From positions 1 through 64,000 of the IMG/VR virus record IMGVR_UViG_3300037297_000066: 64,000 nucleotides of DNA; one strand, written 5' to 3'. The notes below the pieces were generated by a model that searched no databases, was not told where the DNA came from, and saw nothing but the letters and a program-made list of their open reading frames with translations. Shown here one piece after another: positions 33,286-57,809 of the stretch. How positions within the stretch are numbered: position 1 is the first letter of the stretch; each line of letters starts with the position of its first letter. This DNA comes from a virus. Made by a program: the position numbers and the translations under genes.

Positions 33286-33300
33286 GGTGTACAGGTGGGT
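33286..33300 (+). promoter_or_regulatory. GGTGTA box directly before the AAA+ gene
   Basis: GGTGTACAGGTGGGT abuts the ATG at 33301. The spacing of its TACAGG core to the start codon (6 nt) implies that transcription would start at or next to the ATG. One of a family of similar boxes in this window. Confidence 0.55.
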
Positions 33301-34908
33301 ATGAACCCTGAATTTGTAATGCATCTGCGGGCCCTCTCACGCTTCATTTACTACGTAACGGAGGAGGAGGACACATTTCTGAAGGCCCTACACGAGGGCC
33401 CTTTGGCGAAGCACTCAGATCGAACCTGGGTGTTCAATCCTGCTCTGGGTATGGTTCCTCTGGCTCAGCTCATTCAGGACTGGGGTCAGAAGACTCACCA
33501 GGAAGACCCCAACACTACGAACCTGAACAACGCTCTGGTCACTGCCTACAAGGCGGACCCCAGGGAGGAACAGAACTTCTACATCATCACCGATCCTGAT
33601 CGGTACTTGGTGGAGCCTCACATCCAGCGGCGGTTACTGAATATCGCTCATCAGTTGCATCAGGACATCCGCAACATCAAGATCTTCATCTTCGTCGGGT
33701 CTCGCCTGGTGGTGCCTCAGAAGTTGCAGCGGTACATCGAAGTAGTTCACGATCACGGATTGTCGGACGCTGAGCTGCAAAAGAAGATCAAGGCCAACTG
33801 TGAGCACCTCCACATGCCTGTTCCTCCCAACATCCATAGGGTCTTTCGGGGGCTCACGGATTACCAGGTCGATGCTGCCTGCGCTCAGAGCGTCGTACTT
33901 ACCAGAAAGGACAAGGGTGGGCAGAAGCGTCGTCTCGATCCTAAGATCGTCGGAGACTTCAAGCGTCGGAAGCTTTCCCAGACCTCTCTACTGAGCCATC
34001 TCGACACGGTTGGGCAGGGGTTCGAGAACGTGGGTGGTGTCCAACGGTTCAAGACTTGGGCCGAGAAAACGAAGGCGACCTGGACCGAAGAAGGACAGAA
34101 GTTTGGCCTTCGTCCTCCCAAGGGCGTCCTGGCTGTCGGGGTTTGGGGATGTGGGAAGTCCATTTCCGTCAAGGCCCTAGGCCAGTGCTGGAACCTTCCG
34201 GTAGTCCAGCTCGAAATGGGCAAGCTCCGGTCTAGTGGGGTCGGGGAAACGGAAGCCAACGTCTACCGAGTGACGGGACTCATCGAATCGGTGGCCCCTT
34301 GTATCATCTGGGTGGACGAAGCTGAGAAGTCCATGAGCGGTGGTCAGTCGAGCTCCCAGTCAGATGCTGGCACCACTTCTCGGGCCATCGGCATTCTGTC
34401 CACGTGGCTACAAGAGACCAAGGCCCCCGTTTGCTTGGCCATGACTGCCAATGCCGTGGACACGCTTCCCATCGAATTCATCAACCGGATGGATGAGCGG
34501 TTCTTCTTCAACCTCCCGAGTACCGAGGAGAGGATCGAAATCGCTAAGATCCATATCTCCAAGTGGGGTCAAGATCCCGACAAGTTCAACCTGGCAGAGG
34601 TGGCAGAAAAGGCTGCGAACATGGTCGGTCGTGAGATCGAACAAGCCATTGGAGCCGCCATGGTCGAGTCTTTCGACGCTGGCAAGGATGGTCTGGATGA
34701 GACGATTCTGTTGACGGAACTGGATCGGAAGCCCAGAATCTTCAAGACCATGGCCAAGGAGCTGAAGGAACTCATGGACTGGGTCGGCTACGATCCGGAC
34801 AAGAAAGAGGGCATTAGGGCCCGCTTGGCTTCCAGTGACGAAGATGATGCCATGCAGACTACCTTCCAAATGGTCTCTGATGAGGACGATTCGGAAGACG
34901 ACGACTGA
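33301..34908 (+). CDS. Ycf46-like AAA+ ATPase
   Basis: 535 residues; the ATG at 33301 directly follows a conserved promoter-like box, and longer frames upstream have no support. The N-terminal half holds a degenerate, ATPase-like domain (YYIITDPDRYLVE). The C-terminal half is a full AAA+ domain: Walker A GVWGCGKS, Walker B IIWVDEAEK, sensor 1 AMTANAVD and the Arg finger region INRMDERFF. This arrangement matches Ycf46, known from plastids and cyanobacteria. The tail is acidic. Likely an ATP-driven remodelling factor acting with the DUF1257 and DUF2997-like neighbours. Confidence 0.8.
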   Translation: MNPEFVMHLRALSRFIYYVTEEEDTFLKALHEGPLAKHSDRTWVFNPALGMVPLAQLIQDWGQKTHQEDPNTTNLNNALVTAYKADPREEQNFYIITDPDRYLVEPHIQRRLLNIAHQLHQDIRNIKIFIFVGSRLVVPQKLQRYIEVVHDHGLSDAELQKKIKANCEHLHMPVPPNIHRVFRGLTDYQVDAACAQSVVLTRKDKGGQKRRLDPKIVGDFKRRKLSQTSLLSHLDTVGQGFENVGGVQRFKTWAEKTKATWTEEGQKFGLRPPKGVLAVGVWGCGKSISVKALGQCWNLPVVQLEMGKLRSSGVGETEANVYRVTGLIESVAPCIIWVDEAEKSMSGGQSSSQSDAGTTSRAIGILSTWLQETKAPVCLAMTANAVDTLPIEFINRMDERFFFNLPSTEERIEIAKIHISKWGQDPDKFNLAEVAEKAANMVGREIEQAIGAAMVESFDAGKDGLDETILLTELDRKPRIFKTMAKELKELMDWVGYDPDKKEGIRARLASSDEDDAMQTTFQMVSDEDDSEDDD

Positions 34909-36116
34909 TGACTGCTGGAATTCTCAAGCCTCCCAGTCGTGAGGACCTCCTGGCAGGGAGGCTTGAAGTCGCTGTTTCTTCGACGGCCACTCCTAGCGCT
35001 GAGAATCTGCTTCAGGCTCGGGCGGACCTCAACCGAGACGAGGACCTGAGGCAGATTCTTGAGCGTTTCCGATCCGAGAAACGCTCACGGGACTGGCTGG
35101 CTGATGTGTTGGCTATCCGTATGGCCGTCCTGTGGGGGGACTCCGTACCCTTCTCTGACGTGGTGGAAGTGTGCGGCTACCTCGCTGATGAGGCTGAACA
35201 ACTGGGGGAGGGCATTTACCTGGCTTCCCCTGAGACGGGTAAGGTACAGGCCGTTCTGTCTGAAGAGGACTTGTACCAGCCGGAAATGGTTCCACGAGAA
35301 GGTGGGGGCCTGGCCCAGCCTCTTAAAAGGGTTCGTCCGGATCTGGAAGCGGCCATCATCTGCCACTACCACGAGAAGGACAGAGAGGAGAAAATCCTTA
35401 GGGCCCTGCGTAAGAAGCTACCTTCAACTGAGCTCCTGGTAGATGGGTTTGATTCTAGGCTCCGTATTGCCACTAGGGCGGGCCGTAGTGCCATTGTGCA
35501 GTCTGTGACCCAGATGACTCCAAAGGCTCTCCTAGAAGCAGCTGGGGGCACTACGGGGGCATTCCTGCGCTACCTGGAAGTTGTGACCGACGACAAGGAC
35601 CCAGACCCCTCTTGGCAGGATCTGGGGGAGCATATAGCTGTGGCTAGGTCCCGAATGGGTATTCAGGACCCCACTACCGTCAACCTGCAGTACAACCGGG
35701 AAGCAGCCCTTAGAGGTATAATCCCCCAGCAATGGGTAAGAGGTATAGCCAGTTGGTTGGCCGAACATGTATGTAAGGAGAGGGCTCCTGTGGTGCCCAT
35801 CCCCGTGGAAGATCTCACCGAAGAGGATCTGGCTTCCATTGCTTTCTGGTTGCTACCCCCAGACGCCTATCCCGTGTTTGAACGCCTGCAGCCTGGAATG
35901 CAGGCGATGCCTCTCGAAAACATTGATCCAGTGGGGATCTTCAAAGGAGCCCGTCTTGGGCGCCTGGTGGTGGATGAGAGCTTTGGGGCCTCCAGCCACG
36001 AGTTGTTTGCCCGATGGGAGACCGAGGCTCATCTGAAGTACCGTCTATACCTCAACCCCAAGTCGGTCTATCTGCTTCGACTATCTGGGTTGGCTCACGC
36101 TGCTGTGGTGGTCTGA
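34908..36116 (+). CDS. Unknown partner of the AAA+ gene
   Basis: 402 residues, start coupled to the AAA+ stop by TGATG. The N-terminal 60 residues are helical and charged. The middle includes EIYLASPETGK-like and IICHYHEKDREEK segments but no recognised fold. The C terminus is hydrophobic (LRLSGLAHAAVVV), perhaps an edge strand. Tight coupling suggests a joint function with the Ycf46-like ATPase. I do not recognise the family. Confidence 0.6.
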   Translation: MTAGILKPPSREDLLAGRLEVAVSSTATPSAENLLQARADLNRDEDLRQILERFRSEKRSRDWLADVLAIRMAVLWGDSVPFSDVVEVCGYLADEAEQLGEGIYLASPETGKVQAVLSEEDLYQPEMVPREGGGLAQPLKRVRPDLEAAIICHYHEKDREEKILRALRKKLPSTELLVDGFDSRLRIATRAGRSAIVQSVTQMTPKALLEAAGGTTGAFLRYLEVVTDDKDPDPSWQDLGEHIAVARSRMGIQDPTTVNLQYNREAALRGIIPQQWVRGIASWLAEHVCKERAPVVPIPVEDLTEEDLASIAFWLLPPDAYPVFERLQPGMQAMPLENIDPVGIFKGARLGRLVVDESFGASSHELFARWETEAHLKYRLYLNPKSVYLLRLSGLAHAAVVV

Positions 36117-36364
36117 TGGCGTATTACTCTCTGGTGGTGAAGTCTCCTCGACCTCAAGGAATAACGGATCTCCGGAGGGGTCTAGATGAGGGGATCAACG
36201 CTTTTTCCACCCTGTGGACAGGCAGCCAAGAGGAACTGGTCCAGACCCTAAAAACTGCTGGCGTTGAGATCGTCCAACTGAACCGCCTGGACCAACTCGA
36301 AGAGTGCTCTGCTCAAGACATGTTGTTGCCGGGGGAGTCTCCGGAGAAGTTGCTGGGGCAGTGA
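36116..36364 (+). CDS. Small protein of the AAA+ operon
   Basis: 82 residues. The ATG at 36116 overlaps the preceding stop as TGATG; an upstream in-frame ATG at 36014 lies inside the previous gene and is rejected. The protein is alpha/beta (YYSLVVKSPRPQG, ELVQTLKTAGVEIVQL), with no membrane segment or metal site. Third in an overlapping chain after the ATPase. Function unknown. Confidence 0.5.
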   Translation: MAYYSLVVKSPRPQGITDLRRGLDEGINAFSTLWTGSQEELVQTLKTAGVEIVQLNRLDQLEECSAQDMLLPGESPEKLLGQ

Positions 36365-36388
36365 TGGCCGGTAGTGTGGTAAGGTAGA

Positions 36389-36733
36389 ATGGCTCTCCCT
36401 CGTGTGTCAGTGAGGGGCGCCAAAGACTTGATCCTAGACTACTGCACTCGTCAAGGGCGCCCGGTCCGGGTGGAAGAGCTGGCCAATTACCTGGGGAGTG
36501 ACTGGGACTTGTCCCGAACGGCTGAGTTAGTTCGGGTGATGCTTCGCAAGAGGGAGCTCCGGGAGTCTTCGAAAAAGGAAGAGAAGCTCTACCAGGTGTC
36601 CGGTGTCAGAGCGGCTGTAGATTCTTCCAGACGCTCAAAAGGTAGGCTACAGGCATCAGGGAAAGCACGTGGAAGATCTGATCCACTGTCACAACCAGAA
36701 CAATCCCCAGAGGAGTCTGGGCGTACTCCTTGA
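36389..36733 (+). CDS. Winged-helix-like DNA-binding protein
   Basis: 114 residues. Residues 10-70 read as a winged helix-turn-helix (DLILDYCTRQGRPVRVEELANYL, then a recognition-like helix and a KLYQV wing). The remaining 45 residues are basic and disordered. A weak relative of the GGTGTA box, GTGTGGTAAGGTAGA, abuts the ATG. Its 3' end overlaps the convergent DUF3307-like gene by 128 bp. Likely a small transcription regulator. Confidence 0.55.
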   Translation: MALPRVSVRGAKDLILDYCTRQGRPVRVEELANYLGSDWDLSRTAELVRVMLRKRELRESSKKEEKLYQVSGVRAAVDSSRRSKGRLQASGKARGRSDPLSQPEQSPEESGRTP

Positions 36734-37073
36734 ACCCCTCTTTGCCCTTTTCCACTACGACGGGCGGACGCCGCACGTACCTCATCCACCAGTAGGTTGG
36801 CAGGTACGTGTCGATGAAGAAATGGGTCACTAGGAGCCAGATGCCCGTCATCATCAGCAGGATCTGGAAGTTCTGTAGGGTTCTCCAGAACAGCCATAGG
36901 CATCCCAGCATCAAGGCCGTGTAGAGGACGCAGTGTCCAAGACGAATGAACCAGTCTTTAGACTTTCTCAGGGCTTCTCCGTGACTCTGGAAAAGCCAGT
37001 CACAGACAAAATGGCTCACAATCAGCAAACAAAGGTAGCTTCCCAGAAGGGTTGGTAAACTTGTTGTATCCAT
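36606..37073 (-). CDS. DUF3307-like membrane protein
   Basis: 155 residues with four hydrophobic spans (near 7-25, 44-62, 68-85 and 125-148). An early H-x3-D-W-L-F-Q signature (SHFVCDWLFQS) and a helix with LGHCVLYTALML fit the DUF3307 family, frequent in phages. The ATG at 37073 directly follows a GGTGTA box on the minus strand. It is a single minus-strand gene in a plus-strand block and is divergent from the next gene. Function of the family is unknown. Confidence 0.65.
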   Translation of the reverse strand: MDTTSLPTLLGSYLCLLIVSHFVCDWLFQSHGEALRKSKDWFIRLGHCVLYTALMLGCLWLFWRTLQNFQILLMMTGIWLLVTHFFIDTYLPTYWWMRYVRRPPVVVEKGKEGFKEYAQTPLGIVLVVTVDQIFHVLSLMPVAYLLSVWKNLQPL

Positions 37074-37088
37074 ATCTCACTGTACACC
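37074..37088 (-). promoter_or_regulatory. Minus-strand GGTGTA box before the DUF3307-like gene
   Basis: On the minus strand GGTGTACAGTGAGAT abuts the ATG at 37073. Only four bases separate it from a plus-strand box at 37093, so the two form a back-to-back promoter pair. Confidence 0.5.
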
Positions 37089-37092
37089 AACC

Positions 37093-37107
37093 GGTGTATG
37101 GTTGGGT
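37093..37107 (+). promoter_or_regulatory. GGTGTA box before the 37108 gene
   Basis: GGTGTATGGTTGGGT abuts the GTG at 37108. Its TATGGT core ends six bases before the start codon, consistent with a leaderless transcript. Confidence 0.5.
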
Positions 37108-37371
37108 GTGGCTCTACGAAAAGTGAAGCAAACGTACCTGACGATCGTCAGGACTTACGCTCATCGGGGGGTATTGCCCGAAGTCATTGCGAGGTTCGAA
37201 GCGATGGTTCGGGCATGTAGATCCCAAGAGGAAATGGCCCAGGTGGTTCAAGCCCTGAGAGATTTTGAGCTCGGTCTGCGAAAAGGAACTGACGCAGCCT
37301 CTCTAGTCATTCGGGAAGACGACCCCTTGGGGTTTGACGCATACGAAAAGGAACTCCTGGAATCATGCTAG
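37108..37371 (+). CDS. Small helical protein
   Basis: 87 residues. The GTG at 37108 is chosen because it directly follows the GGTGTA box; a TTG at 37102 would fall inside it. The protein is helical (VRTYAHRGVLPEVIARFEAMV, EEMAQVVQALRDF), with no cysteine or membrane segment. It overlaps the next start by seven bases. Function unknown. Confidence 0.5.
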   Translation: MALRKVKQTYLTIVRTYAHRGVLPEVIARFEAMVRACRSQEEMAQVVQALRDFELGLRKGTDAASLVIREDDPLGFDAYEKELLESC

Positions 37372-37808
37372 GTACACAATTTGCGGCTGTCCAAATTGGA
37401 CAGAAAGAGACAGCCCACAAGGCAATAGAGCACTTCATGAACACAGCTGTGGGGTTGGGTTGTCGATTCCGTACCCTGGAGACTTTTGGGGAGATGACCG
37501 TGGGGTCTAGGAAATTCGTTCGATTTCGAACAGATTGCTGGAAGCTTCAGGAGGTTTCTCAGCAGCTCTTGAAGGAAGGCCGGGGAACGATCCTACCTGA
37601 CGGGAACCGCTACAAGGTTGAGTTTCCCACGGGTCAGAAGGGGACCCTCAATACCACGGTCTTGCAAGCGGCCCCTCTTCCCTCGCAAAACCGGGTGTAC
37701 CGGGGTCCTAAGCTCAAGTTCTGGGATCGCCAATTTGACTTCGATTACAACTCAATGGGAGCCACGACGGGCAGATTTACGTCGTCTCAAGGGGCGGTCA
37801 CTGATTAG
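37365..37808 (+). CDS. Unknown protein with polymerase-like TGRF motif
   Basis: 147 residues. The last 20 residues contain GATTGRFTSSQG, which resembles the TGRFTAPQG motif of the family A polymerase in this window, but no other polymerase motif is present. The body is alpha/beta and basic. It could be a remnant of a polymerase gene or a chance likeness. The stop is followed by a 53-bp gap with GGAGGG before the next gene. Confidence 0.45.
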   Translation: MLGTQFAAVQIGQKETAHKAIEHFMNTAVGLGCRFRTLETFGEMTVGSRKFVRFRTDCWKLQEVSQQLLKEGRGTILPDGNRYKVEFPTGQKGTLNTTVLQAAPLPSQNRVYRGPKLKFWDRQFDFDYNSMGATTGRFTSSQGAVTD

Positions 37809-37861
37809 AGCTTTTATGGTTTCCCCTTTATGAATCCGGTCTCCTGTTCGGAGGGTCCACC

Positions 37862-38515
37862 ATGCTCAGAGAAGCTCATCAGGAACTCGTATCCCTAGCC
37901 CAGGCAATTCGGAAGGAGTTTCCTGACCGAACGGAATTGGCGATCTCTGCTCAAAAGCTGGCTGAAAACCTGGCTTGGGTGCCCAAACAGGCCGCCGCTG
38001 ATGATCAGGATTCCGAAGAAGTGGCTATCGAGACCATTTTCAAGCCACAGCTGCAAAAAGCTCAGGGCAAGATGTCCAGCCAATGGTGGCTGCCTCCCCA
38101 CAATCTGATGGTGAACCGGGCTCTGATGGCGTGGAACTTCTGGCAGTTTTCCATTCTGCCAATGTGGCCCAAGAAGAAGGCATTCCGGCCCGCTTCTGAT
38201 CGTTACCCTGCAGGCATCGTGATTCACCCCATCTGGCAGCCTCTGAACAAGGACTTCGGGGTTCTAACTCCCGAAATCGCTACGAAGATCGTGGGTGTGA
38301 TGAAGAGTGCCAAGAGCATTCCGGAAACGGTTAAGAACGAGGTGGACTGGATCGCCCGGACCTTTAGCGTCCAGATCCCGTCTGCTGTCGTGTCGAAGCT
38401 TCAGGCCGAGTCGGTGAAGGTGGCCAAGCGGCGCATGAACGTGGACCGCTTGAAGGTCAAGGATCGTCTCATCCCCCTGGATGGTAGCAAGCCTATCGAC
38501 CTGCCCCGGTGGTAG
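37862..38515 (+). CDS. Unknown structural or assembly protein
   Basis: 217 residues, preceded by GGAGGG at a good distance. The N-terminal 65 residues are helical and charged. The centre has an aromatic segment (WWLPPHNLMVNRALMAWNFW). The C terminus is basic and helical (KVAKRRMNVDRLKVKDRL). No family is recognised. It abuts the nitrilase-like gene with no gap. Confidence 0.5.
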   Translation: MLREAHQELVSLAQAIRKEFPDRTELAISAQKLAENLAWVPKQAAADDQDSEEVAIETIFKPQLQKAQGKMSSQWWLPPHNLMVNRALMAWNFWQFSILPMWPKKKAFRPASDRYPAGIVIHPIWQPLNKDFGVLTPEIATKIVGVMKSAKSIPETVKNEVDWIARTFSVQIPSAVVSKLQAESVKVAKRRMNVDRLKVKDRLIPLDGSKPIDLPRW

Positions 38516-39268
38516 ATGCTCGTCGCCGCTATCCAGTTTGCTCCACGGTTCAAGGCCGTGGAATCCAACCTGGCTCAGATGGTGGCCTTGGTTGAGACGG
38601 CTATTGATAGGGGCGCTCGACTCATCGTCCTTCCCGAGCTGTGCACCACAGGCTACTCGTTCATGAGTCGGGATGAGGCTGCTCCTTTCGCCGAGGCTCT
38701 CAACACCTGGGAGGAAGGGGGTCCTTCTTTCAAGCGGATGCAGGCTTTGGCTGGGAATGCCCAAGTAGCCATCGTCTGGGGTCTAGTCGAGAAGTACACG
38801 GGAAGGGACAAGAGGTACGGAAGCCTCTACAACTCCCAAGTCCTGATGCCTCCCAAGGGCGCCTATCACGTTCACCGAAAGATCAACCTCTGGGGAAATG
38901 ACTACCTTTGGGCGACCCCTGGGACCGAAAATCCTCCGGTTGTGGAACTCTTTGGAAAGCGGGTGGGAATCGTCATTTGTAAGGACATACGTGACCACAC
39001 GGGAGACAACTCTAAGGAATACTACGAGCCTGGAGACGCTGACATCGTGTGTCTTAGCGCCTCCTGGGGGGACGGAGAGTTCCCTTCAGGACGGTGGATC
39101 AAGTTTGCCAAGAGCAACCAAGTCCACCTGATCGTATCCAACCGGTATGGTCAAGAGGGGGCCAACAACTTCGGAGAAGGCGGCATTTGCATCGTTCATC
39201 CTGATGGCCAGGTTGACTGTGAGGGACTGGTCTGGAGTGAGCCCTGCATCGTCTATGCGGAGGTGTGA
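38516..39268 (+). CDS. Nitrilase-superfamily carbon-nitrogen hydrolase
   Basis: 250 residues. The catalytic triad is visible: Glu41 in VLPELCTTGY, Lys122 in HRKINLW and Cys155 in VICKDIRDH. This fold hydrolyses amides or nitriles; by length it fits a single-domain amidase such as an omega-amidase or N-carbamoyl amidase, and the substrate cannot be told by eye. It starts directly after the previous stop. Carbon-nitrogen hydrolases are rare in phages and might act on NAD-related amides or on peptide or polyamine amides. Confidence 0.8.
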   Translation: MLVAAIQFAPRFKAVESNLAQMVALVETAIDRGARLIVLPELCTTGYSFMSRDEAAPFAEALNTWEEGGPSFKRMQALAGNAQVAIVWGLVEKYTGRDKRYGSLYNSQVLMPPKGAYHVHRKINLWGNDYLWATPGTENPPVVELFGKRVGIVICKDIRDHTGDNSKEYYEPGDADIVCLSASWGDGEFPSGRWIKFAKSNQVHLIVSNRYGQEGANNFGEGGICIVHPDGQVDCEGLVWSEPCIVYAEV

Positions 39269-39270
39269 CG

Positions 39271-40395: not shown

Positions 40396-40408
40396 CCGAA
40401 TTCATAGC

Positions 40409-40424
40409 GGTGTAGGATAGGATC
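40409..40424 (+). promoter_or_regulatory. GGTGTA box before the 40425 gene
   Basis: GGTGTAGGATAGGATC abuts the ATG at 40425. It keeps the GGTGTA and a G-rich downstream part but has a looser core than the other boxes. Confidence 0.45.
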
Positions 40425-40685
40425 ATGGCAAAGCTGAACGGAAAGACCCTTTGGGTGGCCCGAGACTACAATCCTGGGATGGAGCCCGGGGAGAACCTGT
40501 TCAAGGTCACGGTGGGGGATTCTCTCATCACCCAGATCAAGGGTACTGCTCGGCCTTGGGACGAACACTGGGCCTTCTATGACTCTCAGCGAGAAGCCGA
40601 AGCTGACGCCAACAAGCGCAGAGAGAAAGGTCAGAAATCGAAACGAGCCGATGGGCCGAATTACGACTACGACCGGCAAACCTGA
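40425..40685 (+). CDS. Small basic protein, unknown
   Basis: 86 residues. A beta-rich N-terminal half (KTLWVARDYNPG, LFKVTVGDSLITQ) is followed by a charged, Lys/Arg-rich tail. No known motif. It stands alone between two GGTGTA boxes, so it may be its own transcription unit. Confidence 0.5.
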   Translation: MAKLNGKTLWVARDYNPGMEPGENLFKVTVGDSLITQIKGTARPWDEHWAFYDSQREAEADANKRREKGQKSKRADGPNYDYDRQT

Positions 40686-40691
40686 TCGTTT

Positions 40692-40706
40692 GGTGTATCG
40701 TAGGGT
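40692..40706 (+). promoter_or_regulatory. GGTGTA box before the ClpX homologue
   Basis: GGTGTATCGTAGGGT abuts the ATG at 40707. TATCGT at 40696-40701 ends five bases before the ATG, which puts the expected transcription start at the start codon. Confidence 0.55.
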
Positions 40707-41989
<1,283 letters not shown>

Positions 41990-41993
<4 letters not shown>

Positions 41994-42472: not shown

Positions 42473-42496
42473 TCTATTTGTGGGGTTCCTAAGGCA

Positions 42497-42937: not shown

Positions 42938-42954
42938 GGTGTATGGTTCCCTTG
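42938..42954 (+). promoter_or_regulatory. GGTGTA box before the DUF1848-like gene
   Basis: GGTGTATGGTTCCCT lies two bases before the ATG at 42955. Because it follows a clear terminator, it is the best positional evidence that these boxes are promoters. Confidence 0.55.
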
Positions 42955-43764
42955 ATGCTCAGCGGTAGAGTCGAAAAGCTCCCTTACTCACTGTCTCGGT
43001 GGACCGACGTCCCGGCTGGAAAGTGGGACTGGTTCCGGAGACGCTTGGACGCTGGGTGGATGATAGGTTTCAGCCCCACGAGAATGGGGTTGCCTGCTCG
43101 CTGGTCCCTGGCCCCGGAGGATGTGCTGGGGCTTGTCTTCTGGACCCGGGACCCCCGAGCTCTCATCCAGGATGTCGATCTCCTCAAGCCATACAGTCTG
43201 GTGATCCACATGACGATCACGGACTGGTGGGAGGTCGAAGATAGGGTTCCCCGCTCTTCTGAGAGCCTCGAATGGTTGAAGCAGGCTGTGGATACCTTCG
43301 GCACTCAGAACGTTGTTTGGAGATTCAGCCCTGTGCCCGCCGTAGATGACGTTGTAGAGCGTTTTGAGCGACTGGTGAAGGCAGTCTACCCCACTGGCCT
43401 AAGAAGCGTCTACATGTCCTTCTTGCAGGAGAATGACCAGCTCTGGGATCCCCGGAATGCAGACGAGCAAAGGCAGGTCATCCGTAGCATGGCTCAAGTC
43501 TGTCCCTCGGACTTCGAGGTGCGTCTCTGCCGGGAGAATCGGGTACCCATCGGGGGGAGCTGCAAACTACTGAACCTCCGTAGAGCAGTATGCGAGGACG
43601 GAAGTCGATTTCATCTTCCAGTTCATGGTCCTGACAGTTCCCTAGTAGATTCGTGTGGTTGCGCCATTTCTGTGGACGCTTTCACCATCAACGAGGGGTG
43701 TAAATTCGGCTGCAAATATTGCTACGCCGTCCAGGAACCGTTAGATCCTATCGAGAAGAGTTGA
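42955..43764 (+). CDS. DUF1848-like Fe-S protein
   Basis: 269 residues. The ATG at 42955 is preferred because an upstream ATG at 42943 would lie inside the promoter box. Features of DUF1848 are present: LGLVFWTRDPRALI, VWRFSPVPAV near 125 and a C-terminal cluster CGCAISVDAF then CKFGCKYCYA. This CxxxCxxC arrangement resembles a radical-SAM type iron-sulphur site, although here it is at the end of the chain. The reaction is unknown for the family. It could modify DNA, tRNA or protein. Confidence 0.65.
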   Translation: MLSGRVEKLPYSLSRWTDVPAGKWDWFRRRLDAGWMIGFSPTRMGLPARWSLAPEDVLGLVFWTRDPRALIQDVDLLKPYSLVIHMTITDWWEVEDRVPRSSESLEWLKQAVDTFGTQNVVWRFSPVPAVDDVVERFERLVKAVYPTGLRSVYMSFLQENDQLWDPRNADEQRQVIRSMAQVCPSDFEVRLCRENRVPIGGSCKLLNLRRAVCEDGSRFHLPVHGPDSSLVDSCGCAISVDAFTINEGCKFGCKYCYAVQEPLDPIEKS

Positions 43765-45339: not shown

Positions 45340-45413
45340 ATTTTGTCTTGACTTGGTACCCCGGTGTATTGTTTGTTCACTGGGAGTCATAACCAGATGG
45401 AGAACGGATCAAA
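45340..45413 (+). promoter_or_regulatory. Promoter region of the H1-like gene
   Basis: A 74-bp gap with an AT-rich upstream tract (TATATAAATTTTG). TTGTCT and TATTGT, 18 bp apart, make a fair sigma70-type promoter, and the -10 is embedded in a GGTGTAT box at about 45363. The ATG at 45414 is some 40 bases further with GGAG upstream, so this copy would give a normal leader. Confidence 0.5.
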
Positions 45414-49202: not shown

Positions 49203-49207
49203 CTGCC

Positions 49208-50702: not shown

Positions 50703-50711
50703 AAGCGTGAC

Positions 50712-50906
50712 ATGTCCGATTCACCAAAAGGCAAAGTGGTGGGGTTCAGCGCCCATGAAACTCAAAGGCTCATGGTGTTGGATTACGATCTAAAGGGCCG
50801 CACCAAGGATGAAGCTGAGAAGCTTGTGAATGAGGGAAAGGCTCGTTGGGTTCTGGAACCCGGGGCTGTTCTGACTCTGGAGATATTGGAGGTCGAAGAT
50901 GAGTAG
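50712..50906 (+). CDS. Small beta/helix protein
   Basis: 64 residues, nine bases after the exonuclease stop. It has a central helix (TKDEAEKLVNEGKARWV) between beta strands and ends in an acidic strand (TLEILEVEDE). No known motif. It overlaps the next start by eight bases. Confidence 0.5.
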   Translation: MSDSPKGKVVGFSAHETQRLMVLDYDLKGRTKDEAEKLVNEGKARWVLEPGAVLTLEILEVEDE

Positions 50907-51072
50907 CGCATATAGTCCTTGGTGGCGAAGGTTTCTCCAACGCTACTGTCCGTTCCTCTTCAAGAAGTGCCATGGGGAAAACTATCACTGGCGATGGGAT
51001 CGAGAGTGTCACTGTCGAGTGAACGAGTATACTGCCGACTGGAATGGGGGCGTCTACTACTTCCCTCGTTGA
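50899..51072 (+). CDS. 57-residue Trp/Cys-rich protein
   Basis: Short frame from the ATG at 50899, which overlaps the previous stop. The product is very rich in Trp, Tyr and Arg and has four cysteines, two in CHC near 37-39. Codons fit the neighbours. The next gene starts eight bases after its stop. A small zinc or membrane-interacting protein is possible; the role is unknown. Confidence 0.5.
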   Translation: MSSAYSPWWRRFLQRYCPFLFKKCHGENYHWRWDRECHCRVNEYTADWNGGVYYFPR

Positions 51073-51079
51073 GGCAGGA

Positions 51080-51940
51080 ATGGCCAAGAAACCTTTCCAA
51101 GAGAAAGACTTTACCCCTGAGTTTGAGGCCAAGCTGCTTCAAAAGGTCAAGGAACACTTTCCTGATCCCATTTGCCCAGAGTGTGGGGCTACCTTGGTCT
51201 TTTCGGACGGGCCTGGTCGGAGGATGCGTTACCGAGGAGAGGACGGCTACGAGGTTCCCGAGGGCTTGGGCTACCGGGAGTGTCCTCAGTGTGGAGCTCA
51301 ATGGCTGACGGCTTCCCAGATCAAACAGCTCAGCGAGGCTTTCGAAGCACAGCGTAGGGAAAGACACCCTCCTCTTCTTAAACGACTGGTGATTCTGGAG
51401 ACACCTTTCGCAGCCTTGTCCTATGAGGACATAGCCAAGAACCTGGACTACACCAGAAGGTGTGCTCGGCATTGTCTGGACGTTGGAGACGCCCCTTTTG
51501 CCTCCCATCTGATCTACACACAGGCCCTGGACGACACGATCCCTTCTCTTCGAACGCTGGGCATCGAAGCAGGGCTCCTGTGGGGCAGCCAAGCGTCTGC
51601 TTCAGTCGTGTACACTGACTTGGGGATCACTCCAGGGATGGAGAAGGGGATGGCCCGAGCCATCAAGGAAGGGCGTGAGGTTGAGGAGAGAACCCTTCCA
51701 GAGGAGTACTGGAAAATCACTCTTCCGGTATTTCCGGGTTCCCCAAGGCTCTGCAAGGACTGTGCTTACTTGCAACCTGGGAACGAGTGTCCTGTGCTGG
51801 GAGGGAGTGAACTTCACGACGCTCTGGACGTGGTGTCCTACGTGGAGAACCCTTTCAGTGCCAGTCCTGAAGGGGTTCCGGTTGTGAGCGTAACCGTGAA
51901 CCCTGACGAGATGGGTTGTTTGTGCTTCAAATCGAGGTGA
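51080..51940 (+). CDS. Nucleoside deoxyribosyltransferase-like domain protein with zinc ribbons
   Basis: 286 residues. The ATG at 51080 is favoured by GAGGCAGG upstream over an in-frame start at 51044. A zinc ribbon (CPECG...CPQCG) at about 31-75 is followed by a fold with LETPF, FASHLIYTQALDD, GLLWG and VVYTDLGITPGM, which matches the DUF7768 family, related to nucleoside 2-deoxyribosyltransferases. A Cys cluster (CKDCAYL...C) precedes the end. It could handle nucleotide or base-modified substrates. The family call is from pattern only. Confidence 0.6.
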   Translation: MAKKPFQEKDFTPEFEAKLLQKVKEHFPDPICPECGATLVFSDGPGRRMRYRGEDGYEVPEGLGYRECPQCGAQWLTASQIKQLSEAFEAQRRERHPPLLKRLVILETPFAALSYEDIAKNLDYTRRCARHCLDVGDAPFASHLIYTQALDDTIPSLRTLGIEAGLLWGSQASASVVYTDLGITPGMEKGMARAIKEGREVEERTLPEEYWKITLPVFPGSPRLCKDCAYLQPGNECPVLGGSELHDALDVVSYVENPFSASPEGVPVVSVTVNPDEMGCLCFKSR

Positions 51941-51943
51941 AGG

Positions 51944-52108
51944 ATGCCTTACACCGTGATTAGAATTGACGGAACGGCCAAACAGTTTTCAAAGTCGGAC
52001 GCTGCCATACAGTTTCTCATCGAGAGCGAAGGGTACGCAGAGCTGCTCGATTCCGGGGGGAGAAAGCTTCTTCAGAAAGGTCTCCCCCCGACCGGACACC
52101 TTCACTGA
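51944..52108 (+). CDS. 54-residue protein
   Basis: Short frame from the ATG at 51944, with GGTGAAGG overlapping the previous stop as ribosome site. It starts MPYTVIRIDGTAKQFSKSD and has a central helix (DAAIQFLIESEGYAELL). It precedes the second metalloprotease gene by 42 bp. Function unknown. Confidence 0.5.
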   Translation: MPYTVIRIDGTAKQFSKSDAAIQFLIESEGYAELLDSGGRKLLQKGLPPTGHLH

Positions 52109-52150
52109 CCACGGCCTCACCGAGATTTCACTGATGGGCCCGATCCAGTA

Positions 52151-54151
52151 ATGGACCCGCTTTTTGTCCGGATAGCTGCCAGGTACCAAAAGAAGAAGAC
52201 CCTGGATACGGGCACTGTCGTCTACGAGTACACCAAGCGGCAGGTGCAGCTCCGGAACCGGGAAAAGGCTCGTAGGCTGGAAAGCCTGCGCTCGAACATC
52301 AAGAGCCTCCAGAGCCAGGTCAAGAAGGACCTGGCTTCTGACGACCCTGAGACAAAGCTGACTGCTTTGGCCATCGGGCTGATTGATGCCACCTACGAAC
52401 GTGTAGGAAACGACTCTTCGGCCAAAGATGGTCATTTTGGGGTGACCGGCTGGACTAGGGGACAGGTCAAGTTCAGCGGAAAGAAAGCGACCATCTCCTA
52501 CGTCGGCAAGAGCGGCGTCAGGCAGTCCAAGACCGTGACCGATGCCCAGCTCGTCTCGGCTCTGAAAGACGCTTGTGAGGGCTCTGAGGGCGAGGATGGG
52601 GCAATCTTCGGTGGGCCCGTCCGTATCGACGCCCCGAAGGTCAACCGGTACCTCAAGAAGTTCGATATCACTGCAAAAGATCTTCGGGGGTTCCATGCCA
52701 ACCGGGAGATGAAGGAACGCCTCAAGAGGATCCGAGCTGAGGGTCCTGAGCTCCCCCACGGCCGGAAGGAAAAAGACAAGGTCCTAAAGGACGAGTTCAA
52801 GAAGGCTCTGGAGGAGACAGCCAAGGCGGTAGGACATGAGGCTTCCACGCTCAGGAGCCAGTACCTGGTTCCGGACCTAGAGCCGGACTTTATGGCGGAT
52901 GGTCGGGTAGACGGGAAGATGACCAAAAAGGGGACCACCTACGAGGTCAACCAGGCATTCATCGACAAGCTTCGGAAAGACTTCCTGACCCTCATTGGCA
53001 ACATCAAGCGGATCAAGACTGACCGTGACCGAGAAATGGTCCGGAAAGGGTTCCAAGCCTGGAGGAAGTACTTCGAGAAGACCATCTTCAAGAACTGGCT
53101 CAACAACAAGGACGTGAAGGGGGAGAGTTGGGGCTACGCTGTTCGCAAGCCTGCTTGGGACTTCTACCTGGAGCTCACCCTTCCCGAGGACCCCAACCAG
53201 TGGAAGAACTGGGAGAAGAGAGTCCGACGCAAGGGGCAGGTGGTCTGGAAGGAACTGAAGGATGTTGCTGCTCGTTGGGAACGACAGCGAGAGATGGAGC
53301 TCCAGTACGGACTAGAGGGAGAGTCGTTGACGCTGCCTCCCCGAGGCGAAGCCCCCTCTGAAGAACGAGTCACTCTGGAAGGCTTCACGGTCGTCCTCAT
53401 AGGCTTGCAGCTTCGCACCGGGGATCACCCAAGCGACTATGATCAGCGAATCAGAGAACTGGAGAAGTTCAAGTCGGAGCTGAAACGGTACAAGGGCCAA
53501 GCGGCCAAGCACTTCCCGTTGTTGCTCAAGGCCAAGATCCCCATCTACTTTGACTACACGATGGGGCTCGACAAGGGAGGGGACTACGACCTGTACGAAG
53601 GCAACAAGCTTCGGGTCAACCCTTCGAGTACCGTTTCGAGTGGGGACAAGGATGCTGTTTGGGTGCTGGCTCACGAAATGAGTCACCACATCTGGAAGAC
53701 ATTTCTGGGAGGTGAGGCTCACAAGTTGTGGGATACCATGCTCGGAGGGACTGCGGATTTGGATCTCACCGAGCTCATGCATCGATGGCCCGAGGAGATC
53801 ACGTACACAAGCGACTTCGTTCGGAGTATGAGCGACAAGGATCCTATATACGCTCTTCGAGTGGACGTAGCGAGTGGGTGGCAAGATGCTACGAATCTAT
53901 GGAAGCGAGAGGACTTCCAGAAGCTTCTGGCTGAAGGCACCCGATCTGTGAAGGTTCCCGCCATCCCCATCTCGGCCTACGCTGGGAAGAACCAGGAGGA
54001 GGCATTTTGTGAGGCTATCGGAGCTCTTGTGAGCCGAGGGCCCCGAGCCATCCACCCTAAGGTTCGTTGGGTCCTCTCTCTCATGTTTCCGGGTCAGATC
54101 AGGATGGCCTTTGTTGTACTAGCTCGCTACCTGGAGTCTAAGCGTGGATGA
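52151..54151 (+). CDS. Large HExxH metalloprotease with RIAARY start
   Basis: 666 residues. The zinc motif HEMSH lies near 508-512 and a later EEAFCEAIGAL segment offers the third ligand. The C-terminal tail region (YAGKNQEEAF) aligns with the two other proteases. N-terminal 400 residues are helical and charged, with no known fold. The opening MDPLFVRIAARY matches four other proteins here. The next gene overlaps by eight bases. Probably a member of the same protease set with a different targeting or regulatory part. Confidence 0.7.
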   Translation: MDPLFVRIAARYQKKKTLDTGTVVYEYTKRQVQLRNREKARRLESLRSNIKSLQSQVKKDLASDDPETKLTALAIGLIDATYERVGNDSSAKDGHFGVTGWTRGQVKFSGKKATISYVGKSGVRQSKTVTDAQLVSALKDACEGSEGEDGAIFGGPVRIDAPKVNRYLKKFDITAKDLRGFHANREMKERLKRIRAEGPELPHGRKEKDKVLKDEFKKALEETAKAVGHEASTLRSQYLVPDLEPDFMADGRVDGKMTKKGTTYEVNQAFIDKLRKDFLTLIGNIKRIKTDRDREMVRKGFQAWRKYFEKTIFKNWLNNKDVKGESWGYAVRKPAWDFYLELTLPEDPNQWKNWEKRVRRKGQVVWKELKDVAARWERQREMELQYGLEGESLTLPPRGEAPSEERVTLEGFTVVLIGLQLRTGDHPSDYDQRIRELEKFKSELKRYKGQAAKHFPLLLKAKIPIYFDYTMGLDKGGDYDLYEGNKLRVNPSSTVSSGDKDAVWVLAHEMSHHIWKTFLGGEAHKLWDTMLGGTADLDLTELMHRWPEEITYTSDFVRSMSDKDPIYALRVDVASGWQDATNLWKREDFQKLLAEGTRSVKVPAIPISAYAGKNQEEAFCEAIGALVSRGPRAIHPKVRWVLSLMFPGQIRMAFVVLARYLESKRG

Positions 54152-55370
54152 CCTGCTTCCCATTCGGGTAGCCGTGCGAGCTCTACGCCATGCTGACAGC
54201 ATTGGCGACCCTGTGAATCTGCTGTCTCGGTTGGAGATGATCCCTCTGAATGAGGCCCTGCTTGTCGAGACCAAACAGATGGGGGAAGCCTTGAAAAAGG
54301 TGTCCCCTCAACAAGTAGCTGAGATCCTTGTCGATCGTAATCGAAGCAAGGAGGAGGAGAGCATCGCCTCTACCTACTACCAGTACGATCGGGCTCTTAG
54401 GAAGCTACGGCTCCAGATAGGGTGGGACTTCGAGGCAGCCAAAAGGGCAGGAGCCGAGCGACTGTTCCTAGCTCTGCTCCAACAACTAGCGCTACCCAAC
54501 AAGCTCAGGAGGCAGGTAGAGAAGGCTGCCCAGTTCTACTCTCGAACCAGAGTCCGGGCCCCTAAAGGGGTGAAGGTCATCGAAGCCTACGAAAAGTTCA
54601 TCAAGGACTTCAAAGGCCACCTGCTGACTGCCAGGACCGCTCTGAAGGTAGGTAAGGCCCACGGGGAGGAAGGCGAAGCCGCTACGAAGCTTCGAGCAGG
54701 CCCCTTCACGGTCGTCAACGCTGGAGGGTTCGACTCCGAATTGATGGATACCGTTGCCAAGGTAGTCAAGAAAGCGGCCAGCCTGCTTCAAGGAAAGGGT
54801 CTCGGAAAGGTCTGCTACGGCAATGTGCTCATGACCAACACGGTAGGACGTTCGTCAAAGCTACTAGCGTTCTACATGGTCTCCGAAGACGAGGTACTGA
54901 TCCGAGCCAACCTCAAAGGTAAAGAACACGATACGGTACGGACCTTGATTCATGAGTTGGGACACCGTCTCTACTACAAGTTCCTCAGTCGAGATCAGAA
55001 GACAGCTGTTATCACTCTCTACAGACAGCTCAGCTTCAAGGAAAGTGATCGGGTCCGGGAAATGCTCAAGGACCCTGCCAACCGACCTGATGTCGGAGAC
55101 ACCTACCAGGAAGGTCGCAAGAAGTACGAAGTGACCAATGTGACCTACGATACGGTTTTCCTGCAAAGCAAGGACGACCCTCGACGGAAGGGCAAGATCA
55201 AGCTCGTTCACTACCTCCAAAACAAGGGACTCGACACACTTGGAGGAGCTTTCGTCAGTGGGTACGCCAAGAAGGACCCTGAGGAGAACTTCTCGGAGAT
55301 GCTGGCGGAGTACTGCCTAGGAAGGCTATCTCCTGACCAGGTGAAGTTGTTGGAACCGATTCTGAGCTAG
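54144..55370 (+). CDS. HExxH metalloprotease, paralogue of the 39271 product
   Basis: 408 residues from a GTG overlapping the previous stop. HELGH near 270-274 and EENFSEMLAEY near 385 supply the zinc ligands. Segments PFTVVNAGGF, VCYGNVLMT and TLIHELGHRLYYKF align with the 39271 product. Between the two zinc motifs an inserted small domain reads VGDTYQEGRKKYEVTNVTYD, perhaps SH3-like. The opening, MDDLLPIRVAVRA, carries the shared signature with Ala in place of Tyr. It ends the plus-strand block and meets a minus-strand gene tail to tail. Confidence 0.75.
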   Translation: MDDLLPIRVAVRALRHADSIGDPVNLLSRLEMIPLNEALLVETKQMGEALKKVSPQQVAEILVDRNRSKEEESIASTYYQYDRALRKLRLQIGWDFEAAKRAGAERLFLALLQQLALPNKLRRQVEKAAQFYSRTRVRAPKGVKVIEAYEKFIKDFKGHLLTARTALKVGKAHGEEGEAATKLRAGPFTVVNAGGFDSELMDTVAKVVKKAASLLQGKGLGKVCYGNVLMTNTVGRSSKLLAFYMVSEDEVLIRANLKGKEHDTVRTLIHELGHRLYYKFLSRDQKTAVITLYRQLSFKESDRVREMLKDPANRPDVGDTYQEGRKKYEVTNVTYDTVFLQSKDDPRRKGKIKLVHYLQNKGLDTLGGAFVSGYAKKDPEENFSEMLAEYCLGRLSPDQVKLLEPILS

Positions 55371-55606
55371 TCTAGAAGTTGCAACTGCGGTCCTACCACC
55401 CTAGCCCACAGCAGGTCAGGCCCGACTTCTGGGACTTCCAGAACCCGAGAGGGATCTCGATCTTTCCAAAACTCGTTGTGGGCAAGGACATTAGCCCGCT
55501 GAACCTTCTTGGTGAACGAGGGGGCTTCCTTCAGTTCTGCGACCCATCGATCATCGATCTTCTGTCCGACCTTCGTGTTACGGGGTACGTTCGTCCAAAC
55601 TGGCAT
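55367..55606 (-). CDS. Small basic protein, unknown
   Basis: 79 residues. Its stop overlaps the stop of the convergent protease gene in a CTAG palindrome. It is basic with helical and loop segments (VAELKEAPSFTKKVQRANV). No motif recognised. It is the last gene of the minus-strand block at this end. Confidence 0.5.
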   Translation of the reverse strand: MPVWTNVPRNTKVGQKIDDRWVAELKEAPSFTKKVQRANVLAHNEFWKDRDPSRVLEVPEVGPDLLWARVVGPQLQLLD

Positions 55607-55685
55607 GGCTTTTCCTTTTGGCTAGAACCCGGTCATAGGCGGCCTCAGCCTGCTCCTGAGTCTGGGGAAGGTTCGCAGACCATTC

Positions 55686-55976
55686 TCAGTTGAGAGGCTT
55701 TCCAAGGAAGGACCTGCCGCACTCATTGCAGTCGAAGACTTGAACGACGCCATCGTCTTCGGGTAATTCAATCACAGGTCCAGCACTAAGCTTTCCGCCG
55801 CATTCAGGGCATGCTTGAGCGCCCTCAGGCAACGGATCTACGGGTTCCACGTCTTGAGGATCGAACTCCTCGAAGGCTTTCAGAACCTGTTGTTGGGCCT
55901 CTTCCCTCTGATCTTCAGGGATGTGATCGAAGGCGCCTTTTTGGAAGACCACCTTCAGCTTTTTCTTGGCAGCCAT
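55686..55976 (-). CDS. Small zinc-ribbon protein
   Basis: 96 residues from the ATG at 55976. The C-terminal half has CPECGGKL and CNECGRSF, a zinc ribbon. The N-terminal part is basic then helical and acidic. The 35 codons that follow the stop in the same frame look like coding sequence, but lack a start codon. It overlaps the upstream gene by 22 bp. Confidence 0.55.
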   Translation of the reverse strand: MAAKKKLKVVFQKGAFDHIPEDQREEAQQQVLKAFEEFDPQDVEPVDPLPEGAQACPECGGKLSAGPVIELPEDDGVVQVFDCNECGRSFLGKPLN

Positions 55977-56188
55977 CGTTTCCACCACCGATAGTCAGCG
56001 AGCCGGTTGAGTTCTCTGGTGAGTTGGTCGGAGGTTTTGAAGTCCCCTCGATCTTTGGCCTGGTTGATTTTGGTCACGAGGGCAGCCATCTGTCGGTTTT
56101 TACGTTGCTCCATGAGGGTGTCTACGAACCCCAGGAGAGCAAACACTCCTGCCAGGATGATGAGGACTTTGTAGCCGTGTTCTAGCAC
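55955..56188 (-). CDS. Single-pass membrane protein
   Basis: 77 residues from the GTG at 56188, chosen because a GGTGTA box lies directly before it. It has one membrane segment near 6-24 (KVLIILAGVFALLGFVD) followed by a basic helical part (KNRQMAALVTKINQAK). Function unknown. Confidence 0.5.
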   Translation of the reverse strand: MLEHGYKVLIILAGVFALLGFVDTLMEQRKNRQMAALVTKINQAKDRGDFKTSDQLTRELNRLADYRWWKRWLPRKS

Positions 56189-56204
56189 GGCCCTACTATA
56201 CACC
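56189..56204 (-). promoter_or_regulatory. Minus-strand GGTGTA box before the membrane protein
   Basis: GGTGTATAGTAGGGCC on the minus strand abuts the GTG at 56188. TATAGT is the best -10-like core among these boxes and ends six bases before the start codon. Confidence 0.55.
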
Positions 56205-56228
56205 ATCTTTTGATGTGCTGCCTCAAGT

Positions 56229-56594
56229 ATGACGGACCTGGATGTCAGGTGGGAACGCAACTTCCAGGCAACTCTCAGACGCAAAGGCATCCTGGAGAGA
56301 GCCGTAGCCTATTTGGGAGGCCGCTGCTGCATCTGTGGCTACAACGCTTGTCTGGAAGCTTTCGATTTGCATCACGTAGACCCGCAGGAGAAAGACTTCA
56401 ACGTATCGGAGCATGTCACCAGTTTCGAGGCCATCCTTCCTGAGATCAAGAAGTGCGAGCTTCTCTGCTGCCGGTGCCACCGAGAGACCCATGCGGGACT
56501 ACATCCGAGCCACATCGTCATGGAAGACGATGATAGGGGTTACGACCCGGACGACCTACCTGAGGGGTTGGGTGAAGTCCTACCGTCCTTGTAG
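56229..56594 (+). CDS. HNH endonuclease
   Basis: 121 residues. HNH pattern: CCICGYN, then FDLHHVDPQEKDF (His-His centre), then LLCCRCHRETHAG. Isolated on the plus strand inside a minus-strand block, which is usual for mobile HNH genes. The tail is acidic. Its end overlaps a small membrane protein gene on the other strand by 55 bp. A homing or nicking role is likely. Confidence 0.8.
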   Translation: MTDLDVRWERNFQATLRRKGILERAVAYLGGRCCICGYNACLEAFDLHHVDPQEKDFNVSEHVTSFEAILPEIKKCELLCCRCHRETHAGLHPSHIVMEDDDRGYDPDDLPEGLGEVLPSL

Positions 56595-56674
56595 CCTTGT
56601 ACGTATCCGCAGGTGATTCCTACAAGGAATAGGAGCAATGGCAGGGCTCCTGTAGCAAGGGCATCCCAAGGCAT
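56540..56674 (-). CDS. 44-residue membrane protein
   Basis: From the ATG at 56674. Residues 7-27 are hydrophobic (ATGALPLLLFLVGITCGYV), followed by a short basic tail. It overlaps the HNH gene tail to tail. Upstream in-frame starts would enter the next gene. Small and hence less sure. Confidence 0.45.
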   Translation of the reverse strand: MPWDALATGALPLLLFLVGITCGYVQGYKDGRTSPNPSGRSSGS

Positions 56675-56676
56675 CG

Positions 56677-57057
56677 TCAGCACTCCTCCAGCACTCCGTT
56701 TCTGAGCCATCCGTGGTACTGCCATCCTCCCCCTGGCTTTTGGCCTATGGCGATACTAGGAATGGCTGTGATCTTTGGGGGTGTCCCGGTTCTTGGCCAC
56801 CCGGGCCCGCTTGCTGAGGGGGCGTCGATCATCCAATCCCCACCTGGGGTACGGACAACCAAGCTGAGTCCGTCGGGACCTTCGAACTCGGGCATTCCGT
56901 GGAACCAGTCAGCGTCCCACATAGCCCCCAGGGGAGCCGGAGGAACCCCCTCCTGCTCCGTGTTCCGGAGCTGGTAGACTTTCCCGTCAGGAGCCTTCCA
57001 GAGCCTGTCAGACCCCTCTACGGGTTCGAGCATGAAGCATTCGATCCGGCTCTTCAT
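56677..57057 (-). CDS. Unknown phage protein
   Basis: 126 residues. The ATG at 57057 (MKSRIECFMLEPVEG) has GGGAG upstream; a longer frame from 57252 lacks a site. The protein has a conserved-looking W-rich core (GAMWDADWF, GGDWMIDAPS, GWQYHGWLRNG) like a family often found in phages. No catalytic motif is recognised. Confidence 0.55.
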   Translation of the reverse strand: MKSRIECFMLEPVEGSDRLWKAPDGKVYQLRNTEQEGVPPAPLGAMWDADWFHGMPEFEGPDGLSLVVRTPGGDWMIDAPSASGPGWPRTGTPPKITAIPSIAIGQKPGGGWQYHGWLRNGVLEEC

Positions 57058-57208
57058 CACGGACTCCCTCTTTAAGCCACTGGGCTTTGCTTCAAAAGGG
57101 GGTGATTCTGGTTTGACAAGGCAAGCTTTTTCGGAAGAAATGAGGGGAAACAACTCCAGCTCTGCGGTTTTAAGGCAGAGACTCCAGAGACTAAGTCCAG
57201 GTAGCTTT
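57058..57208. other. 151-bp gap without a clear gene
   Basis: Between two minus-strand genes. It holds a small hairpin, CTCTGC (57160-57165) with GCAGAG (57175-57180), and a T-rich stretch, but no T-loop typical of tRNA and no promoter box. The reading frame that crosses it has no ribosome site. Confidence 0.4.
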
Positions 57209-57403
57209 TCATTTCCGGAGAATCCTACCGCACTTGGGGCAGTAGGCGACAACCCCTTTTCGAGGCTTGGTGGGGATTCTCATACGGGCACCACAGACGC
57301 AGAAGGGTTCCTCTTCAGGCTCCTGTCGCTTTCTATCGTCGGGGACCACCATTCCTGCCACAGAAAGCATGGCAGCCATGGCCAAGGCGGTGTCCTTCTT
57401 CAC
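57209..57403 (-). CDS. Small zinc-ribbon protein with hydrophobic start
   Basis: 64 residues from GTG at 57403. Residues 4-18 are hydrophobic (TALAMAAMLSVAGM), perhaps a signal or anchor. CVCGARM and CPKCG form a zinc ribbon in the second half. It overlaps the upstream gene by four bases. Confidence 0.5.
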   Translation of the reverse strand: MKKDTALAMAAMLSVAGMVVPDDRKRQEPEEEPFCVCGARMRIPTKPRKGVVAYCPKCGRILRK

Positions 57404-57579
57404 TCGATCTTCCTTCCCTTTACCTTGAGGTTCTTGTTGGTCAGCTCGATGTCTCTTTGCCGGCCGCTGAACTCCAAGAGGTTCTCGATGAGCTGATCCA
57501 CAAGTAACTCTCGGGCATCCTGCATGCGGTCAGAGGCCACGTCTAGCTCGACGGTGACGGAGAATCTGTAGGTATTCAT
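57400..57579 (-). CDS. 59-residue protein
   Basis: From the ATG at 57579. It starts MNTYRFSVTVELDVASD and has a long helix (DARELLVDQLIENLLEF), then a basic tail. The opening resembles that of the small gene at 59414 (MLNTVRVRYSIEVEIPND), so the two may be distant relatives. It overlaps the next gene by four bases. Confidence 0.5.
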   Translation of the reverse strand: MNTYRFSVTVELDVASDRMQDARELLVDQLIENLLEFSGRQRDIELTNKNLKVKGRKIE

Positions 57580-57583
57580 GGTG

Positions 57584-57793
57584 CTAGTACGTGCCCCTCC
57601 GATGTCTCAGCTTTCTACGCTGGGGCGATGGGATCTCCCATATGGTATTGACCTCATCTATAAACATTGAGGGACAGACGCCTACCATCCGAGCGCCTGG
57701 AGGCGGTTTATTGTCCAAGACGATTCTGTCACAGTTTTTCCCGTATTTCAGGTAGCCAGGGATCTTGGTCACTTTGATGATGTGTTGGGCCAT
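57584..57793 (-). CDS. Small basic protein, unknown
   Basis: 69 residues from the ATG at 57793, directly after a GGTGTA box; an upstream start at 57826 would lie before the box. It is basic with one strand-rich part (IVLDNKPPPGARMVGV). No motif. Confidence 0.5.
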   Translation of the reverse strand: MAQHIIKVTKIPGYLKYGKNCDRIVLDNKPPPGARMVGVCPSMFIDEVNTIWEIPSPQRRKLRHRRGTY

Positions 57794-57809
57794 AACCCCA
57801 CCATACACC
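57794..57809 (-). promoter_or_regulatory. Minus-strand GGTGTA box
   Basis: GGTGTATGGTGGGGTT on the minus strand abuts the ATG at 57793. TATGGT ends six bases before the start codon. Confidence 0.5.

What the first reader, a model, noticed from the sequence alone, without database searches (positions are those of the whole stretch)
33286..57809. Recurring GGTGTA(T/C)nnTnGGG box directly before start codons: likely leaderless promoters
The box is found at 33286, 37093, 40409, 40692 and 42938 on plus, and at 37088, 56204 and 57809 on minus, each ending 0-2 bases from an ATG or GTG. The TATNNT or TACAGN core ends 5-7 bases before the start codon in nearly all. If this core is a -10 element, transcription begins at or beside the start codon, which gives leaderless mRNAs. 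The box at 42938 follows a terminator. No constant -35 is seen, so a phage-specific factor or extended -10 use is possible. The G-rich part is too close to act as a normal Shine-Dalgarno site.
Basis: partly seen in the sequence, partly recalled or inferred. Interest (0 to 1): 0.8.

Follow-up and report, generated by a model that had tools for sequence, protein, structure and literature searches.

The report
Leaderless-mRNA promoter box of huge phages
A short DNA signal, GGTGTA, placed about ten bases before the start codon of dozens of genes in this huge bacterial virus and its relatives, looks like a promoter that starts the messenger RNA at the start codon itself, so these messages would carry no leader for the ribosome to bind.

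Summary
The box is real. All eight sites exist; four match the strict pattern, which occurs 27 times in the 437-kb phage record and never in a reversed control. A weight matrix finds 101 sites against 4, 60 of them 1-3 nt before a start codon with an open frame; random places give 2.5%. Two strict boxes head two CRISPR-array leaders and another box precedes the tmRNA gene, so the box marks transcription starts, not translation. In about 30 related huge-phage records only GGTGTA and its distance to the start codon persist: pooled over six genomes, 160 ATGs at 10 nt against 2 in control. The geometry puts the start codon at +1. There is no -35 element, and divergent pairs 3-7 nt apart leave no room for one. 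A second, bipartite leaderless class resembling ECF-sigma promoters differs from phage to phage. The box is nearly absent from the late structural region. Leaderless promoters are strongly supported by sequence; no transcript has been mapped and the recognising factor is unknown. Closest precedents: Thermus phage phiYS40 and the Deinococcus TANNNT promoters. New variant of a known kind.

The parts
33286..33299 (+). class I box GGTGTACAGGTGGG; ATG at 33301 (535-aa ORF to 34908)
   Evidence: 16.7 bits
37075..37088 (-). class I box GGTGTACAGTGAGA; ATG at 37073 (155-aa ORF 36606-37073)
   Evidence: (19.0 bits); divergent pair with 37093
37093..37106 (+). class I box GGTGTATGGTTGGG (strict); GTG at 37108 (87-aa ORF)
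   Evidence: (20.1 bits); 4 bp from the divergent box
40409..40422 (+). class I box GGTGTAGGATAGGA (weak 3' half); ATG at 40425 (86-aa ORF)
   Evidence: (12.3 bits)
40692..40705 (+). class I box GGTGTATCGTAGGG (strict) before the ClpX-like gene 40707-41993
   Evidence: 20.4 bits; a box is also present before the orthologue in G001, G003, G014 and G019
42938..42951 (+). class I box GGTGTATGGTTCCC; ATG at 42955 (DUF1848 gene 42955-43764), downstream of a terminator-like hairpin
   Evidence: (13.0 bits); box before the orthologue in G001 and G014
45363..45376 (+). further candidate box GGTGTATTGTTTGT, intergenic, 45 nt from GGTGTA to ATG 45414 (would be leadered)
   Evidence: (14.2 bits)
56191..56204 (-). 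class I box GGTGTATAGTAGGG (strict); GTG at 56188 (77-aa ORF)
   Evidence: (22.2 bits)
57796..57809 (-). class I box GGTGTATGGTGGGG (strict); ATG at 57793 (69-aa ORF)
   Evidence: (23.0 bits)

Best explanation
The box is the class I promoter of a clade of huge tailed phages. It is a -35-less element, YGGTGTA plus a lineage-specific 3' half (YNGTRGGG here). TA occupies the -12/-11 place of a -10 element, the G-rich stretch is the discriminator, and transcription starts at or within about 2 nt of the start codon, giving leaderless mRNAs for many genes of the non-structural region. The same box starts the two phage CRISPR arrays and the tmRNA. Shown by sequence: motif, enrichment, spacing, conservation, non-coding targets, lack of -35. 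Inferred: transcript 5' ends, early timing, leaderless translation. Unknown: the factor, either a phage sigma-like protein or host RNA polymerase, redirected or not.
For: 27 strict hits vs 0; weight matrix 101 vs 4; 60 of 101 sites have a start codon 1-3 nt downstream, random 2.5%. CRISPR leaders at 99436 and 108955 share sequence that begins at the box, and arrays follow. GGTGTA ends 18 nt from the tmRNA and 25 nt from a tRNA-Val 5' end. Clade-wide GGTGTA-N8-11-ATG: own 73 vs 5, G003 91 vs 5, G010 82 vs 4, G014 71 vs 0; peak at N=10 (160 vs 2), where the A of ATG is +1 if TA is -12/-11. The ClpX box is kept in five genomes whose DNA polymerases are 43-53% identical to this one. Box genes lack SD (1 of 16) while other genes show SD ~11 nt upstream. 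Divergent boxes 3-7 nt apart leave no -35 space. No conserved -35. GGTGTA is depleted in the coding sense strand in G014 (13 vs 35 expected) and G019 (19 vs 38).
Against: No RNA data. 18 of 101 strong sites have no start codon with ORF >=50 within 30 nt; some are RNA genes, others unexplained. Depletion in coding sequence is weak in this phage and absent in G003. Outside ClpX and a few genes, box positions are only weakly conserved between orthologues (p 0.0006-0.06). No factor is tied to class I.
Confidence: 0.85

Rival explanations
1. The box is a translation signal: a non-SD ribosome-binding or start-codon context element in a leadered mRNA.
For: Tight spacing to ATG/GTG and a G-rich 3' part.
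Against: Strict boxes start two CRISPR leaders, and boxes precede the tmRNA and a tRNA, which are not translated as mRNAs. The G-rich part is too close for SD pairing and is not conserved in relatives. Other genes in the same genomes use ordinary SD at ~11 nt.
Confidence: 0.04
2. The box is an operator for a phage repressor or activator; a separate promoter lies elsewhere.
For: Strong uniform consensus; divergent boxes form inverted repeats 3-7 bp apart, like a dimer site.
Against: Most boxes are single and strictly oriented towards the gene; the distance to the start codon is fixed at -10-element distance; no second conserved element within 60 bp upstream in class I.
Confidence: 0.07
3. Class I is an ordinary extended -10 promoter of the host primary sigma; nothing phage-specific is involved. 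(This is a sub-reading of who recognises the promoter; it is compatible with leaderless transcription.)
For: TANNNT-like core with G-rich discriminator in this phage; no multisubunit RNAP found (PF00562 none; no DFDGD-type motif); TANNNT leaderless promoters are common in Deinococcus-Thermus (PMC12340547).
Against: T at -7 is not kept in G014 or G001, GGTG upstream is part of the shared core, and TG sits one base off the classical extended -10 place. Three bacterial/archaeal bins that hold relatives' contigs show no enrichment (21 vs 21, 55 vs 59, 45 vs 44), though these may not be hosts.
Confidence: 0.3

Closest known systems
Thermus thermophilus phage phiYS40 middle/late leaderless transcription (PMC3594737, citing Sevostyanova 2007)
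   Same: A phage that makes most transcripts of a temporal class leaderless
   Different: Here sites lie in the replication/accessory part and are nearly missing from the structural region; a GGTGTA box conserved across a clade of ~300-500 kb phages; host unknown
Deinococcus-Thermus TANNNT -10 adjacent to ORF (PMC12340547); mycobacterial leaderless genes (PMC4633059)
   Same: A -10-like element directly before the start codon, no SD, no needed -35
   Different: Core is GGTGTA, not TANNNT; -7 T dispensable in some relatives; found in phages, not host chromosomes
phiKZ/AR9 non-virion RNAP promoters (TATG; AACA-N6-TA/G; PMC5312081)
   Same: Short jumbo-phage promoters near the start site
   Different: Sequence differs and no phage multisubunit RNAP was detected here
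ECF-sigma promoters (relevant to class II)
   Same: Class II: -35 GGAAAA / CCGAAC / GTTAAGAT with -10 CGTCT / CGTAGTA / CGTGTARTA
   Different: Leaderless, and the pair changes from phage to phage; cognate sigma only inferred

Membership tests
Leaderless promoter (-10 element abutting the start codon) | -10-like element at fixed distance so that +1 falls on the start codon | tested here: met
   GGTGTA-N9/10/11-ATG peak 92/160/71 vs 3/2/0 in control
Leaderless promoter (-10 element abutting the start codon) | no Shine-Dalgarno before the gene | tested here: met
   SD-like in 1/16 box genes vs 91/286 others (small sample)
Leaderless promoter (-10 element abutting the start codon) | transcript 5' end at the start codon | not testable with these tools
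   needs RNA from infected cells
sigma70 TANNNT -10 element | T-12, A-11 and T-7 all conserved | tested here: not met
   TA fixed by the search core; T-7 81% (own) and 65% (G003), no preference in G014
sigma70 extended -10 | TG at -15/-14 | tested here: not met
   TG lies at -14/-13 in this register; the register itself is inferred
phiKZ-type phage RNAP promoters | phage encodes its own multisubunit RNAP | tested here: not met
   no PF00562 match, no catalytic motif; very divergent subunits not excluded
ECF-type phage sigma factor (proteins A/B at 271-274 kb) | sigma regions 2 and 4 | tested here: inconclusive
   A: PF04542 E 0.02 own, 7e-7 in G003; B: PF08281 E 0.0024; Foldseek no hit E<=0.001, though the top hit of B is an ECF sigma at E 1.7
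sigma70 region 4 protein (C at 334433-335101) | Sigma70_r4 domain above the curated cut-off | tested here: met
   PF04545 E 7e-13, 48 bits; kept in most relatives

The most novel reading that the evidence does not exclude
A large lineage of huge phages runs its non-structural half through two leaderless promoter codes: an invariant -35-less GGTGTA code, and a fast-changing ECF-like bipartite code made by a phage-encoded, self-regulating tandem of sigma-like proteins. The phage would thus impose leaderless translation on hosts not known for it.
Probability: 0.45. Interest if true: 0.8.

Novelty: new variant of a known kind. Interest (0 to 1): 0.68.

Why it matters
It gives a promoter code for a widespread but uncultured group (over 400 IMG/VR contigs carry its capsid gene). 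It allows correct start-codon and operon calls, and separates genome regions with and without the box. It also sets up a test of how phages redirect host RNA polymerase and get leaderless mRNAs translated. No paper describing this box was found in the searches made.

Tried and rejected
RBS reading (rejected by CRISPR/tmRNA boxes). Phage multisubunit RNAP (not found). Host by relatives: PolA finds no bacterial contig; the capsid protein finds three MAG contigs in bins of different phyla, so no host call. The box in nearest isolates: no excess in Tunturi_5 (6 vs 5), a small one-sided excess in Bacillus phage G (13 vs 5), 29 vs 11 in the metagenomic phage LR745208. A late promoter motif for 303-437 kb: none found. 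Structure models of A and B (pLDDT 72 and 70) gave no significant fold match. A literature search for the word GGTGTA with phage gave only an unrelated paper.

Full report
1. What was checked. The window is bases 1-64000 of a 437,331-base IMG/VR virus record; I read the whole record as pieces. It is a tailed phage: capsid, terminase, family A DNA polymerase, DnaB, ClpX, GroEL, ~53 tRNAs and a tmRNA. All eight boxes exist as stated; four fit the strict pattern and four deviate in the 3' half.

2. More than chance. GGTGTAYNNTNGGG occurs 27 times, its reversed control 0 times. A weight matrix gives 101 sites at >=14 bits vs 4 in the reversed sequence. Of those, 60 have an ATG/GTG with an open frame of >=50 codons exactly 1-3 nt downstream; random positions give 2.5%. 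Sites lie almost only from 33 to 303 kb; the rest of the record, with the structural genes, has almost none. No upstream column is conserved.

3. A transcription signal. Boxes 99436 and 108955 are followed by two near-identical ~190-bp leaders and then CRISPR arrays with ~28 and >20 repeats; the likeness of the two leaders begins at the box. Box 302854 lies just before the tmRNA and box 301939 before tRNA-Val. These are not translated as mRNAs, so the box is not a ribosome signal. If TA is -12/-11, a gap of 10 nt puts the A of ATG at +1; this is the commonest gap. Box genes lack SD, others have it at ~11 nt. Twelve divergent pairs exist, eight with only 3-7 nt between boxes, so a -35 has no room.

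4. Relatives. DNA polymerase relatives show GGTGTA-N8-11-ATG far above control in most of 28 records; a box stands before clpX in all five genomes compared. Only YGGTGTA and the distance are shared. T at -7 and the G-run vary, which limits the simple TANNNT reading. The capsid protein is 90-93% identical among these phages while the polymerase is ~50%. The box is weaker in LR745208 and not in clear excess in Tunturi_5 or phage G; three MAG bins show no excess.

5. Second class. De novo search of -40..-1 found a bipartite class, also leaderless: here GGTTAAGATC-N9-YTCASGTGTARTAGGGG-N-ATG (41 sites for the -35 part vs 0 reversed); G003 CCGAAC-N17-CGTAGTA (51 sites); G014 GGAAAAAG-...-CGTCT; G019 CCTTAACTT-...-CCGTTCTA. 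These look like ECF-sigma promoters. Phage proteins A and B are neighbours in all 15 loci that gave A, though not in G031; they have weak sigma region 2 and HTH/region 4 likeness. In this phage, G003 and G014 a class II-like site lies upstream of A (here with a different -10), suggesting self-regulation. That A/B read class II is inference. Protein C has a clear sigma region 4 and is conserved.

6. Mechanism, with status. Shown by sequence: motif, spacing, orientation, non-coding targets, clade conservation, no -35. Inferred: initiation at the start codon, leaderless translation, early timing. Unknown: the class I factor (host sigma, A/B, C or another).

7. Known things. Leaderless phage mRNAs are known in Thermus phage phiYS40 (PMC3594737); TANNNT leaderless promoters in Deinococcus-Thermus (PMC12340547); short start-site promoters in phiKZ and AR9 read by phage RNAPs (PMC5312081); phage sigma factors in other jumbo phages (PMC7824862). 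The GGTGTA code and its pairing with a variable ECF-like class were not found described in the papers searched. Verdict: real, leaderless promoter strongly supported, new variant of a known kind.

Noticed in passing
record 64850-271256 (outside window; L009-L019): Second leaderless promoter class GGTTAAGATC-...-SGTGTARTA-...-ATG, ~40 sites, with differing counterparts in relatives
   Followed up: partly
record 271325-272470 and 272901-273686 (L019): Tandem sigma-like genes A and B, diverging fast between phages, preceded by a class II-like site
   Followed up: partly
record 99638-101600 and 109160- (L010, L011): Two phage CRISPR arrays whose repeats are degenerate in a way that seems to keep the palindromic stem by paired changes, plus a Cas7 gene at 104379
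   Followed up: no
record 352702-353580 (L023): Major capsid protein 90-93% identical across phages whose polymerases are ~50% identical; over 400 IMG/VR contigs
   Followed up: partly
record 111116-112093: A minus-strand ORF that matches part of the capsid protein at ~39%; Pfam finds nothing in it
   Followed up: no
proteins of record 104-304 kb (alignment A2 set): An adenylosuccinate synthetase-like protein (PF00709, PHROG 1211), possibly linked to base modification; position not pinned
   Followed up: no
record 198887-, 202097+, 105393+: Strong boxes with no start codon nearby, perhaps small RNAs
   Followed up: no
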